Shown piece by piece: positions 8,407-16,022 of a stretch of 64,000 bases of DNA. The position numbers were made by a program, and so were the translations under genes. The notes beneath the pieces are model-generated. The model was not told the DNA's origin. It searched no databases and saw only the letters and a list, made by a program, of their open reading frames with translations. Within the stretch, counting starts at the first letter, position 1. Each line of letters opens with the position of its first letter. The DNA comes from Planctomycetota bacterium (GTDB lineage Bacteria; Planctomycetota; Planctomycetia; Gemmatales; Gemmataceae): assembly GCA_021807595.1 (NCBI GenBank), contig JAKBCS010000003.1, positions 1 to 64,000 of the forward strand, in the 5' to 3' direction.

Positions 8407-8474
8407 GCTTTGCTTCCTCCGAATAGATTTGCCTATCTTTCAACCTATGGCGGGAAGCGACGGGCGGCTAGAAA

Positions 8475-8570
8475 GCTGTGCGAGGGGATCTTAAGCCCCT
8501 CGCCCCTGTACTCATGGGAGAGGGGAGTATTTTTCCCCCTCTCCCTCGAAGCGGGGGAGAGGGGAGAGTG
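8475..8570. repeat. GC-rich palindromic element cluster downstream of flgL
   Basis: gaggggatcttaagcccctc, a 'ctgtactca' core, and ccccctctccctcgaagcgggggagagggg hairpins in tandem, abutting the flgL stop codon. Confidence 0.7.
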
Positions 8571-12842: not shown

Positions 12843-12908
12843 TCGTCAATCCCTCCCCAAAATATCCGCCGTAAGTTTCGACAGAGGCGAAAAAGTTTAC
12901 CACCGAGT

Positions 12909-12940
12909 CGGTTCGCCCCGACGCGCGTCGGGGCGAACCG
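12909..12940. repeat. 32-bp perfect palindrome between flgI and flgJ
   Basis: cggttcgccccgacgc|gcgtcggggcgaaccg; the two 16-nt halves are exact reverse complements. Confidence 0.95.
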
Positions 12941-12948
12941 GAAGGGGG

Positions 12949-14055
12949 TTAGATAATCACCAACTCCGCTTGCAGCGCGCCGGCCTGCTTGATCGCCTGG
13001 AAGATTGAGATCAAATCGCGCGGCGACACACCGAGCGCGTTGAGGGCGCGGGCCAAATCGGCGACGGTCACGGTCTGCGGTGCGATGTACAGGTGCGCCG
13101 GTTGCTCCGTGACGCCGACTTGCGTGCGCGGCACCACGACGGTTCGCCCCTGGCTGAAGGCGTTGGGCTGCGAGACTTGCGGCGTTTCGCGGGTGACGAT
13201 GGCTAGGTTGCCGTGCGCGATGGCCACCGTGGCGATTTTGACGTTTTCTCCGGCGACGACCGTGCCGGTGCGCTCGTTGATGACCACGCGCGCCGGAGTG
13301 TCGGTCAGCACTTCGAGATTGCCCATGTCGCTCAGATACGCGACGAGATGCGAACGCATCTCTGGCGGCACCTCTACCTCGACCGTTCCGGCGTCGAGCG
13401 GCAGCGCGTGGCCGGGGGCCCATTGATTGACGACGGCGGCGATGGAGCGTGCCGTGGCATAGTCGGCGTTTTTGAGGAGCAGATGAACGCGGCCTCGATA
13501 CATCACCTCGCCGCGCGCCTCGTGTTCGACCATCGCCCCGCCGGGGATGCGGGCGACGGAGACAAAGTTTTTCTGCGCGCTCGCTGCCGCTCCGCCAAAC
13601 AGAAAACCACCCACCGACAGCGGACCTTGACCCACCGCGTAGACCACGCCGTCCGATCCTTTCAATGGCGTGAACAACAGCGTACCGCCCTGGAGGCTGA
13701 TGGCGTCGTCGAGAACCGAGACGGTGACATCGAGTCGACTGCCGACCCGCGCGAACGGGCCGATCTCCGCCGTCACCATGACCGCCGAGATGTTCGGCGA
13801 CATGAAGGTATTGTCCGTCAGTTGCAGCATGGCGATTTTGCTGTTGACGCACAGCCATTTCATCATGGACACGGCTACCTGCTGCGTGAATCGGCTCTTG
13901 CCGCCCGTGCCGTTGAGGCCGACGACCAGGCCGAATCCGTACAGTTGGTTGCTGCGCGCGCCTTCCAGATCGGTAATATCCTTGATGCGCGCGCCGGCCC
14001 AGGTCTGAGCCGCAAGCGCCAGAACGCACGTCACTGCAATCGTCGCGCGAAACAT
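12949..14055 (-). CDS. flgI: Flagellar P-ring protein
   Basis: ARIKDITDLEGARSNQLYGFGLVVGLNGTGGKSRFTQQVAVSMMKWL..; signal peptide. Confidence 0.95.
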   Translation of the reverse strand: MFRATIAVTCVLALAAQTWAGARIKDITDLEGARSNQLYGFGLVVGLNGTGGKSRFTQQVAVSMMKWLCVNSKIAMLQLTDNTFMSPNISAVMVTAEIGPFARVGSRLDVTVSVLDDAISLQGGTLLFTPLKGSDGVVYAVGQGPLSVGGFLFGGAAASAQKNFVSVARIPGGAMVEHEARGEVMYRGRVHLLLKNADYATARSIAAVVNQWAPGHALPLDAGTVEVEVPPEMRSHLVAYLSDMGNLEVLTDTPARVVINERTGTVVAGENVKIATVAIAHGNLAIVTRETPQVSQPNAFSQGRTVVVPRTQVGVTEQPAHLYIAPQTVTVADLARALNALGVSPRDLISIFQAIKQAGALQAELVII

Positions 14056-14127
14056 AGCGGACCTCGAACCTTTCTTGCACGCGGGGGGACTCGGTGGTTT
14101 ACGCCGCCGGATCGCCGCGAGGACTAA

Positions 14128-14270
14128 GAACCTGTCTCATAAGCTCCCCTCTCCCCTGAGTACAGGGGCGAGGGGCAGGGGTGAGGGGTGAAAACCAGCG
14201 GAATGCCCTTCCCCTCACCCCAAACCCTCTCCCCCTGAGTACAGGAGGAGAGGGGCGTTTGGGACAGACT
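14128..14270. repeat. MITE-like triple-hairpin element flanked by CTAA
   Basis: Three consecutive hairpins (two with TGAGTACAG core, one 11-bp ggggtgagggg/cccctcacccc stem); imperfect terminal inverted repeats (gaacctgtctca / tgggacagact); CTAA at 14124-14127 and 14271-14274. Confidence 0.7.
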
Positions 14271-14897
14271 CTAAAACGGGTACAGGCGGTTCATCATGCG
14301 GCTAAACCAGCCTTGATTCGTAAAGTTCGTCTCGACGCCGCGACCCAGATATTGAATCTGAAGGTTGGCCACGAACGTCGAGGGGATCGTGTTGTCGTAG
14401 TGGATGTCGAGGGGGCGAACGACTCCGCTCACACGCAGGGTGCGCACCTCGCGGGTGACGACGCGCTGGCGGAAGCCTTCGATCGCCAGGTTGCCGTTGG
14501 GCAGCACGGCCACGACGGTGCAAGTAAGGGTATCGGTGAACGTCTGATTGATGTTGTACGCCGATGTGCCGTTAAACGTCCGGGTGGCGTTGACATCGGT
14601 CGTCAGCCCGGCCGTAGCGGTGCGCAACGCACCCTTACTCGTGCCTTCGATGTTCCCCTTGAGACTTAAGCCACCGCCGGAATCGCTTTTTCGATTCAGG
14701 TTGCGTTGATCCTGATTTTGAATGTCGGTGTTTTCGACGATCAGCACAGTGACGTTGTCTCCCGCCCGCCGCGCGCGGTTATCCACATAAAGAAACGAAC
14801 TGTAAAAGTTGTGCCGCTGCCAAATCGAATCGGCATTCGTCAGCGCCGGTGAGACGACACAAACCACCAATACCAATCCGATAATCGACCGTGACAT
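14271..14897 (-). CDS. flgH: Flagellar L-ring protein
   Basis: SIWQRHNFYSSFLYVDNRARRAGDNVTVLIVENTDIQNQDQR..GNLAIEGFRQRVVTREVRTLRVSGVVRPLDI. Confidence 0.93.
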   Translation of the reverse strand: MSRSIIGLVLVVCVVSPALTNADSIWQRHNFYSSFLYVDNRARRAGDNVTVLIVENTDIQNQDQRNLNRKSDSGGGLSLKGNIEGTSKGALRTATAGLTTDVNATRTFNGTSAYNINQTFTDTLTCTVVAVLPNGNLAIEGFRQRVVTREVRTLRVSGVVRPLDIHYDNTIPSTFVANLQIQYLGRGVETNFTNQGWFSRMMNRLYPF

Positions 14898-14958
14898 AAA
14901 AGCTCCTCGCGGCGTGGGCCTTCCCTCACCGAACTCGATCCGAACGCTCAGAGGCGAT

Positions 14959-15015
14959 CCGAGAAGCTCCCTCTCCTCCTGTTCTCAAGGGGAGACGTGA
15001 GCTTTGCGAATCGTC
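14959..15015. repeat. Dispersed hairpin-type repeat, copy 1 (copy 2 at 58396-58453)
   Basis: ccgagaagctccctctcctcctgttctcaaggggagacgtgagctttgcgaatcgtct closely matches the segment after the PAC2 gene. Confidence 0.7.
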
Positions 15016-15017
15016 TC

Positions 15018-16022
15018 TCAATACTCGACCTCCACGGTCGAACCATCGACGATGCGGCCCGTAACCGTGGTCTTCGAATCGAGGTTGCGCACCTGGATCA
15101 TCTGCCCGACGCGGCCGCTTTGCAGCGCTTCGCCGCGCGTTTTCACTTGTAAATGTCCAACTTTAGCGATGAGATGAACCAGGTCGTTATTGTGTACAAC
15201 TGTGACGGTGGAGGCGTCCGACCCCACGTCGTCCGGTTCGATGGGGCGACCCGTAACGATGCAACGACGAGCGTGCCGGCCCATGAGACTCGTCGAATCG
15301 ACGACCTTCAGACCGTTCTCAATGGCGACGCGCTCTGCGCGCACATTGTCGGAGGTAAATGCTTCGCCGACATCAATGCGCCGCACGGCGACTGGGACCG
15401 ATTGCATCCTTTTCACGTCCAGGTAGACCACCACGCCGTTGCGGCGCGCGCCGCGAACGTAGATGCCGATTTCGACGGACACGCGGCAAGGCGGCAGGAT
15501 CGGCGAACGAATCTCGGCTTCGAGGTGGATGTCGCCGCCGTCGGCGTTCAAGGGCGGTAAGCTCACGTTCTGCGCCAACTGAATGGCGACATCTTCGGTC
15601 CGTCCGGACAGTTTCTCTTCCACCGTTTGCTTCGCCAGGGCTGCGATCTTCGCATCGAGTCCCTCGCCGGCCGCTCGGCCGACACGGACGAATCGCGGGC
15701 CTTCCAGCTGAAAGGCGCGCGCGTCGAACCCTGCCAATTGCAGGCGAAAGTTGATCTGCTGCTGCGAAACCAGGATGGGCTGACTCGACAGCGGCAATTC
15801 GGCCAGATCGATCCGCGCCAAACGCTTGCGCTGAACTTCCGAACAACCTTGCAGATCGGCAATATCTTCAATCGTCACTTGCGTCCCCTTCGCCGTCGCC
15901 GTCGCGCGGAGCTTGAGGACGAGAACGCTCGACTGCGCGACTTCGGCCGACGAAGCGGCCGGGCGACCGAACGGCCAAGCGACCAGAAACGCCAGGAAAA
16001 ACGTCCACCGTCTACGATTCAT
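15018..16022 (-). CDS. flgA: Flagellar basal body P-ring formation protein
   Basis: C-terminal SAF-like domain: VAVRRIDVGEAFTSDNVRAERV..LMGRHARRCIVTGRPIEPDDV..GEALQSGRVGQMIQVRNLDSKTTVTGRIVDGSTVEV. Confidence 0.9.
   Translation of the reverse strand: MNRRRWTFFLAFLVAWPFGRPAASSAEVAQSSVLVLKLRATATAKGTQVTIEDIADLQGCSEVQRKRLARIDLAELPLSSQPILVSQQQINFRLQLAGFDARAFQLEGPRFVRVGRAAGEGLDAKIAALAKQTVEEKLSGRTEDVAIQLAQNVSLPPLNADGGDIHLEAEIRSPILPPCRVSVEIGIYVRGARRNGVVVYLDVKRMQSVPVAVRRIDVGEAFTSDNVRAERVAIENGLKVVDSTSLMGRHARRCIVTGRPIEPDDVGSDASTVTVVHNNDLVHLIAKVGHLQVKTRGEALQSGRVGQMIQVRNLDSKTTVTGRIVDGSTVEVEY

What the first reader, a model, noticed from the sequence alone, without database searches (positions are those of the whole stretch)
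14124..14274. MITE-like 143-bp triple-hairpin element with CTAA flanks, between flgH and flgI
Seen: three back-to-back hairpins (cccctctcccctgagtacaggggcgagggg; ggggtgagggg...cccctcacccc; ccctctccccctgagtacaggaggagagggg), imperfect terminal inverted repeats (gaacctgtctca / tgggacagact), and CTAA on both sides. The right CTAA overlaps the flgH stop codon. Established: IS5-subgroup elements typically duplicate a YTAR tetranucleotide target. Inference: non-autonomous element mobilised by an IS5-like transposase.
Basis: partly seen in the sequence, partly recalled or inferred. Interest (0 to 1): 0.6.

Follow-up and report, generated by a model that had tools for sequence, protein, structure and literature searches.

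The report
Hairpin mini-transposon at flagellar stop codon
This is a real 144-bp hitch-hiking mini-transposon of a Planctomycetota bacterium, most likely moved by IS5/IS1031-type transposases, that often sits exactly on gene stop codons; its hairpin interior also occurs inside mini-transposons of an unrelated transposase family (IS701), so ends and cargo look interchangeable.

Summary
The element is real: 144 bp (14128-14271), ends GAACCTGTCTCA/GAGTCTGTCCCA, three hairpins (DNA fold z = -5.9), between flgH and flgI. It is one of many copies in a Planctomycetota MAG. The target duplication is 3 bp (TNA; here TAA), not CTAA/YTAR: 16 of 34 two-ended copies have identical triplets (6.3 in shuffles), and a sister species keeps empty sites, including at this junction. 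No intact partner was found in this assembly, but 887-915-bp insertion sequences in relatives have matching ends, TNA duplications and an IS5-family transposase: IS1031-type, not the YTAR-type proposed.

Two things go beyond the finding. (1) The duplicated triplet often is a gene's stop codon (9/23 at ORFs of at least 150 codons, one of them an antisense shadow; baseline 6.7%); a one-hairpin copy in the window duplicates the flgA stop. (2) The hairpin cargo is separable from the ends: in the same two genomes it also sits in elements with ends CNGTACAGCGCT and 4-bp YTAR duplications, the ends of an IS701-family element; in other genomes GAGTCTGTYCCA ends hold unrelated palindromes. How cargo passes between systems is not known.

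The parts
14128..14271 (.). Whole MITE, three-hairpin form, family A
   Evidence: Ends, hairpins and flanks read directly; empty orthologous site in G003, G001, G002
14125..14127 (.). Left copy of the 3-bp target duplication, TAA
   Evidence: family rule TNA
14272..14274 (.). Right copy of the 3-bp target duplication, TAA; overlaps the flgH stop codon (TAG on the minus strand, 14271-14273)
14128..14139 (+). Left terminal inverted repeat GAACCTGTCTCA
14260..14271 (-). Right terminal inverted repeat GAGTCTGTCCCA
14146..14175 (.). Hairpin 1 (loop TGAGTACA, the reverse complement of the loop in most copies)
14178..14221 (.). Central stem GGGGTGAGGGG / CCCCTCACCCC with a variable loop
14225..14254 (.). 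Hairpin 3 (loop TGAGTACA)
14951..15017 (.). Second copy in the window, one-hairpin form (67 bp), ends GAGGCGATCCGAGAAGC / GAGACGATTCGCAAAGC, with TCA on both sides (14948-14950 and 15018-15020); the right TCA is the flgA TGA stop codon
   Evidence: G003 has a single TGA at this place

Best explanation
[quoted passage not shown] The transposase recognises ends of the type GARYCTGTYYCA (inferred) and inserts at TNA, duplicating those three bases (shown by sequence comparison). The interior is not a transposase remnant but a hairpin module (CCCCTCTCCCC-TGTACTCA-GGGGAGAGGGG units; one or three per element, sometimes tandem). Every TNA is a stop codon (TAA, TGA) on one strand or the other, so an insertion exactly on a stop codon duplicates the stop and leaves the protein intact; such insertions are retained (inferred), which explains the places against flgH and flgA. 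The same cargo is also carried by MITEs with the ends of an IS701-type system, so the hairpin module is separable from the ends that move it. No regulatory function is claimed.
For: Repeated element with conserved ends. TNA in 53 of 68 flanks; 16 of 34 triplet pairs identical against 6.25 in shuffles. Empty sites in the sister species at flgH-flgI, at flgA-flgH and for L019, L107 and L138, less exactly L118 and L122. Autonomous elements of 887-915 bp with the same ends and TNA duplications, transposases with DUF4096 + DDE_Tnp_1, L181 an IS5-family transposase NF033580; in G004 such elements and 79-bp MITEs share 16-bp ends. IS1031 group: TNA, 3-bp repeats only, ISLrh end GAACCTGTCT... (PMC12016507). 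Stop codons: 9 of 23 against a 6.7% baseline (five of the genes plus L27 supported by Pfam). Cargo in two kinds of ends.
Against: No intact partner transposase is held in this genome, only degenerate pieces, though multi-copy insertion sequences are often lost from MAGs. 18 of 34 triplet pairs are not identical (one changed base in many). Movement was not observed. The stop-codon test is crude: simple ORFs as baseline, some end pairs chosen by eye, and one of the nine is an antisense shadow. Recognition of the ends by one particular transposase is inferred from end sequence alone.
Confidence: 0.9

Rival explanations
1. MITE of the YTAR-type IS5 subgroup, with a 4-bp CTAA target duplication.
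For: CTAA stands on both sides of this copy, and a C before TNA is common among copies. YTAR elements with the same hairpins exist in the genome.
Against: With the 12-bp ends aligned, the right C belongs to the element. Many copies have T, A or G before the left triplet (L122, L138, L107, L111, L011). The YTAR family has different ends. Autonomous elements with these ends show 3-bp duplications.
Confidence: 0.04
2. REP/BIME-like palindromic repeat, spread by a RAYT (Y1) transposase or by recombination, whose ends are incidental.
For: The hairpin core also occurs without these ends in G014, G023 and G281 and folds strongly.
Against: In G000 and G003 copies are bounded by terminal inverted repeats and target duplications, with empty sites. 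It remains possible for the bare cores of G014 and G023.
Confidence: 0.03
3. A conserved flg-operon feature, such as a terminator, attenuator or mRNA-stabilising structure, selected at the flgH-flgI junction.
For: The RNA fold on the flg strand is strong (-111.5 kcal/mol, z = -4.0). Copies are frequent at gene ends.
Against: Absent from the orthologous junction in three congeners. No terminator-like site. No Rfam family near its gathering score. A secondary effect on the transcript is not excluded.
Confidence: 0.03

Closest known systems
IS5 family, IS1031 group (e.g. ISLrh, 857 bp, PMC12016507)
   Same: Ends (ISLrh GAACCTGTCT..., the first ten bases of the window's left end), 3-bp TNA duplication, element size and transposase type of the autonomous relatives found here
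   Different: The window element has no transposase; its interior is a hairpin module that none of the autonomous elements read here carries
Bacterial MITEs with IS5-type ends and repeat cargo, e.g. BrickBuilt of Porphyromonas gingivalis (PMC4596501)
   Same: Non-autonomous, IS5-family-like ends around a repeated interior not derived from the transposase
   Different: BrickBuilt carries a 23-nt minisatellite and has inconsistent duplications; here the cargo is hairpins, the duplication is regular TNA, and the cargo is shared with an IS701-type family
IS701-type MITE family B of the same genomes
   Same: Same hairpin cargo (42 of 44 bases of the first unit alike, loop TGTACTCA), same two genomes
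   Different: Ends CNGTACAGCGCT, 4-bp YTAR duplication, autonomous 1370-bp element with an IS701 transposase
REP / BIME palindromes (PMC3733652, PMC2817692)
   Same: Short, abundant, intergenic GC-rich palindromes
   Different: REPs are linked to Y1 transposases and carry GTAG or CGTC tags; here there are DDE-type ends and target duplications

Membership tests
MITE (non-autonomous, transposed in trans) | Short, no transposase gene, terminal inverted repeats | tested here: met
   144 bp, TIRs 14128-14139 and 14260-14271; only spurious ORFs overlap it
MITE (non-autonomous, transposed in trans) | Multiple dispersed copies with target duplications and empty sites | tested here: met
MITE (non-autonomous, transposed in trans) | An autonomous element with matching ends | tested here: met
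   In other genomes of the family and class; not in this assembly
MITE (non-autonomous, transposed in trans) | Mobilised by that transposase | not testable with these tools
   Needs a transposition assay
IS5 family, IS1031 group | 3-bp TNA target duplication | tested here: met
   53 of 68 flanks TNA, 16 of 34 pairs identical; single TNA in empty sites; rule from PMC12016507
IS5 family, IS1031 group | Ends of the group | tested here: met
   GAACCTGTCT shared with ISLrh, one published member
IS5 family, IS1031 group | IS5-family DDE transposase in the autonomous partner | tested here: met
   DUF4096 + DDE_Tnp_1, NF033580; assignment to the IS1031 group by sequence was not tested against ISfinder
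IS5 subgroup (YTAR) | 4-bp YTAR duplication | tested here: not met
   The fourth base varies between copies
REP / RAYT system | GTAG or CGTC tag and a linked Y1 transposase | not tested
   No scan for the tags and no search for RAYT genes was made; target duplications argue against it
Intrinsic terminator | Stem followed by a T-run | tested here: not met
   0 sites in 13900-14400

The most novel reading that the evidence does not exclude
In these Planctomycetota the palindromic cargo and the transposon ends are independent modules: one hairpin cassette moves under at least two unrelated transposase systems (IS5/IS1031-type and IS701), and one set of ends carries a different palindrome in each lineage. 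MITE families would then arise by ends capturing, or exchanging interiors with, resident palindromic repeats and not by internal deletion of an insertion sequence, and they settle on stop codons because the target triplet is one.
Probability: 0.5. Interest if true: 0.65.

Novelty: new variant of a known kind. Interest (0 to 1): 0.5.

Why it matters
MITEs are often described as shrunken insertion sequences, and the origin of interiors unrelated to any transposase is a gap. Here the same interior lies inside the ends of two unrelated transposase families in one genome, which makes cargo capture or exchange directly testable. The identity of TNA with stop codons gives a simple reason why such elements collect harmlessly at gene ends, and knowing the repeat helps annotation, since it creates spurious ORFs such as window 14181-14669.

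Tried and rejected
Rfam: 30 matches in 1.2 kb, nearly all on the element, all far below their gathering scores, taken as chance hits of GC-rich hairpins. A literature search by hairpin sequence gave no bacterial repeat among the papers listed. Searches for a resident partner (DUF4096, DDE_Tnp_1, the L181 protein) gave nothing or degenerate pieces. G003 transposase loci L057 and L063 have other ends (GAGCGTGTTTGCAA; GTGGCTGTTT) and were rejected as partners, though L063 shows TTA/TTA. G001 ends GAGACTGTTTCA seem to follow a TA or YTAR rule and were set aside. Inversion of the hairpin loop was seen in few copies, the window's included (2 of 22 triple elements read TGAGTACA in both hairpins), and not pursued. 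The left TAA also ends a 306-codon ORF; that is an antisense shadow of flgI, not a gene.

Full report
WHAT IS THERE. The element runs from 14128 to 14271 (144 bp) between flgH and flgI (Pfam), which are read on the minus strand. The ends GAACCTGTCTCA and GAGTCTGTCCCA (minus strand) match the family pattern without mismatch. Three hairpins lie inside; the DNA fold is -44.1 kcal/mol against -26.9 +/- 2.9 for shuffles. CTAA stands on both sides, as reported, but aligning the ends gives TAA as the duplicated target: the right C is the element's last base and supplies the G of the flgH TAG stop.

COPIES. The genome (G000, 5.67 Mb, 282 contigs) gave 116 BLAST matches with 40 of 280 candidates scored. 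Strands and partial copies are counted repeatedly, and L006 and L007 are one insertion on overlapping contig ends, so this is not a copy number. The pattern GAGWCTGTYYCA occurs 50 times in G000, 0 times reversed; the hairpin pattern 167 times. Elements come with one hairpin (about 64 bp, e.g. L115, L122), three (about 144 bp) or tandem expansions.

TARGET DUPLICATION. In 34 elements with both ends (G000, G003, G020; end pairs picked by similarity and partly by eye), 53 of 68 flanking triplets are TNA and 16 pairs are identical, against 6.25 when right triplets are shuffled. TTA, TAA, TGA and TCA all occur and the base before is free, so a 4-bp YTAR rule does not fit.

EMPTY SITES. G003 (MAG BP6.bin110 by its FlgH contig; same genus, FlgH 96% identical) has no element at flgH-flgI, nor have G001 and G002. 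Joined flanks of twelve other copies were searched against G003 and G001. L019, L107 and L138 align without a gap across the junction with a single TGA, TAA and TAA; L118 and L122 are contiguous with small differences at the site. L002 and its G003 counterpart L031 share flanks and are an inherited insertion. The family was thus active both before and after these species split.

THE MOVING ENZYME. G000 shows no DUF4096 match, one weak DDE_Tnp_1 match and two short degenerate stretches. Scanning 298 genomes of the class for GAGWCTGTYYCANAAG found 53 with matches. Paired ends about 900 bp apart are insertion sequences: L181 (915 bp, TTA/TTA), L187 (909 bp, TCA/TCA), L189 (887 bp, TCA/TCA). Their proteins are DUF4096 + DDE_Tnp_1; L181 is IS5-family NF033580. 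In the complete genome G004, 915-bp elements and 79-bp MITEs share 16-bp ends. PMC12016507 states that the IS1031 group prefers TNA and makes only 3-bp repeats, and gives the ISLrh end as GAACCTGTCTAGTATCT, whose first ten bases are the window's left end. Cut-and-paste in trans by such an enzyme is inferred, not observed.

STOP CODONS. TNA is TAA or TGA on one strand. Of 23 elements with a usable flank, 9 have the triplet as stop of an open frame of at least 150 codons, against 118 of 1758 TAA/TGA sites in the window (6.7%; binomial 9e-6). One of the nine, the window element, is an antisense shadow of flgI; the baseline is crude. Pfam supports the genes at L012 (sigma-70 region 2), L138 (HAD hydrolase), L142 (SpoU methylase), L111 (glycosyltransferase 2), L115 (deiodinase-like) and the shorter one at L118 (ribosomal protein L27); L124 has no match, and L098 and L107 were not scanned. 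In the window a second copy at 14951-15017 has TCA/TCA, the right one being the flgA TGA stop, and G003 has a single TGA there. Retention of harmless insertions is the simplest reading; a preference for gene ends is not excluded.

CARGO AND ENDS ARE SEPARABLE. (a) Same cargo, other ends: in G000 and G003 the hairpins also sit between ends CNGTACAGCGCT (27 and 29 hits of TACAGCGCTACTC, at most 1 in the control). Of 13 such elements 9 have identical 4-bp flanks of the YTAR type (3.5 in shuffles, p = 0.0009). The same ends bound a 1370-bp element in G261, where the end pattern occurs 41 times on each strand, with an IS701-family transposase (NF033540, 284 bits, cut-off 150; Pfam DDE_5). A congener, G002, has such an end at C88:1226-1240, beside a transposase ORF of similar sequence (L072). 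The first 44 bases of the hairpin unit differ at 2 positions between a family-A and a family-B copy. (b) Same cargo, neither end: G014 copies have recurring TCCGGTC...AGCA-like borders and no such TIR; G023 has 198 hairpins and no family-A end. (c) Same ends, other cargo: G048, G253, G270, G138, G186, G120 and G004 hold other sequences, mostly palindromes, between GAGTCTGTYCCA ends, mostly with TNA flanks. How cargo passes between systems is not shown; recombination or template switching at GC-rich palindromes, or capture by flanking ends, are candidates.

VERDICT. A MITE; IS5-family mobilisation is supported by ends, target rule and autonomous relatives, with the subgroup corrected to IS1031-type. 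The element alone is a new member of a known kind. Exchangeable cargo under two transposase families is a variant that I did not find in the open-access library searched, which lacks most subscription papers.

Noticed in passing
window 8472-8570: A further hairpin element right after flgL, with CTAG on the left and TTAG on the right, the right TTA being the flgL TAA stop; no clear terminal repeats, so its family is open.
   Followed up: partly
window 12906-12945, flgI-flgJ junction: A perfect GC-rich palindrome (GGTTCGCCCCGACGCGCGTCGGGGCGAACC) just after the flgI stop, where sister genome G003 instead has a family-B MITE starting at the flgI stop (L248).
   Followed up: partly
L001-L030 and others (G000 contig ends): Many contigs of this MAG begin or end inside copies of the repeat, and some ends overlap (L006/L007), so the repeat fragments the assembly.
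   Followed up: no
L032, L040, L048, L055, L204-L213 (G014): Bare triple-hairpin cores with recurring TCCGGTC...AGCA-like borders and no terminal inverted repeat; what spreads them is unknown.
   Followed up: partly
L180, L251, L252 (G048); L174, L253 (G253); L190, L257 (G138); L218 (G270): MITEs with the same GAGTCTGTYCCA ends but lineage-specific palindromic interiors.
   Followed up: partly
window 14146-14175: Hairpin 1 of the window copy has loop TGAGTACA where most copies have the reverse complement TGTACTCA, as if the loop had flipped between the palindromic arms.
   Followed up: partly
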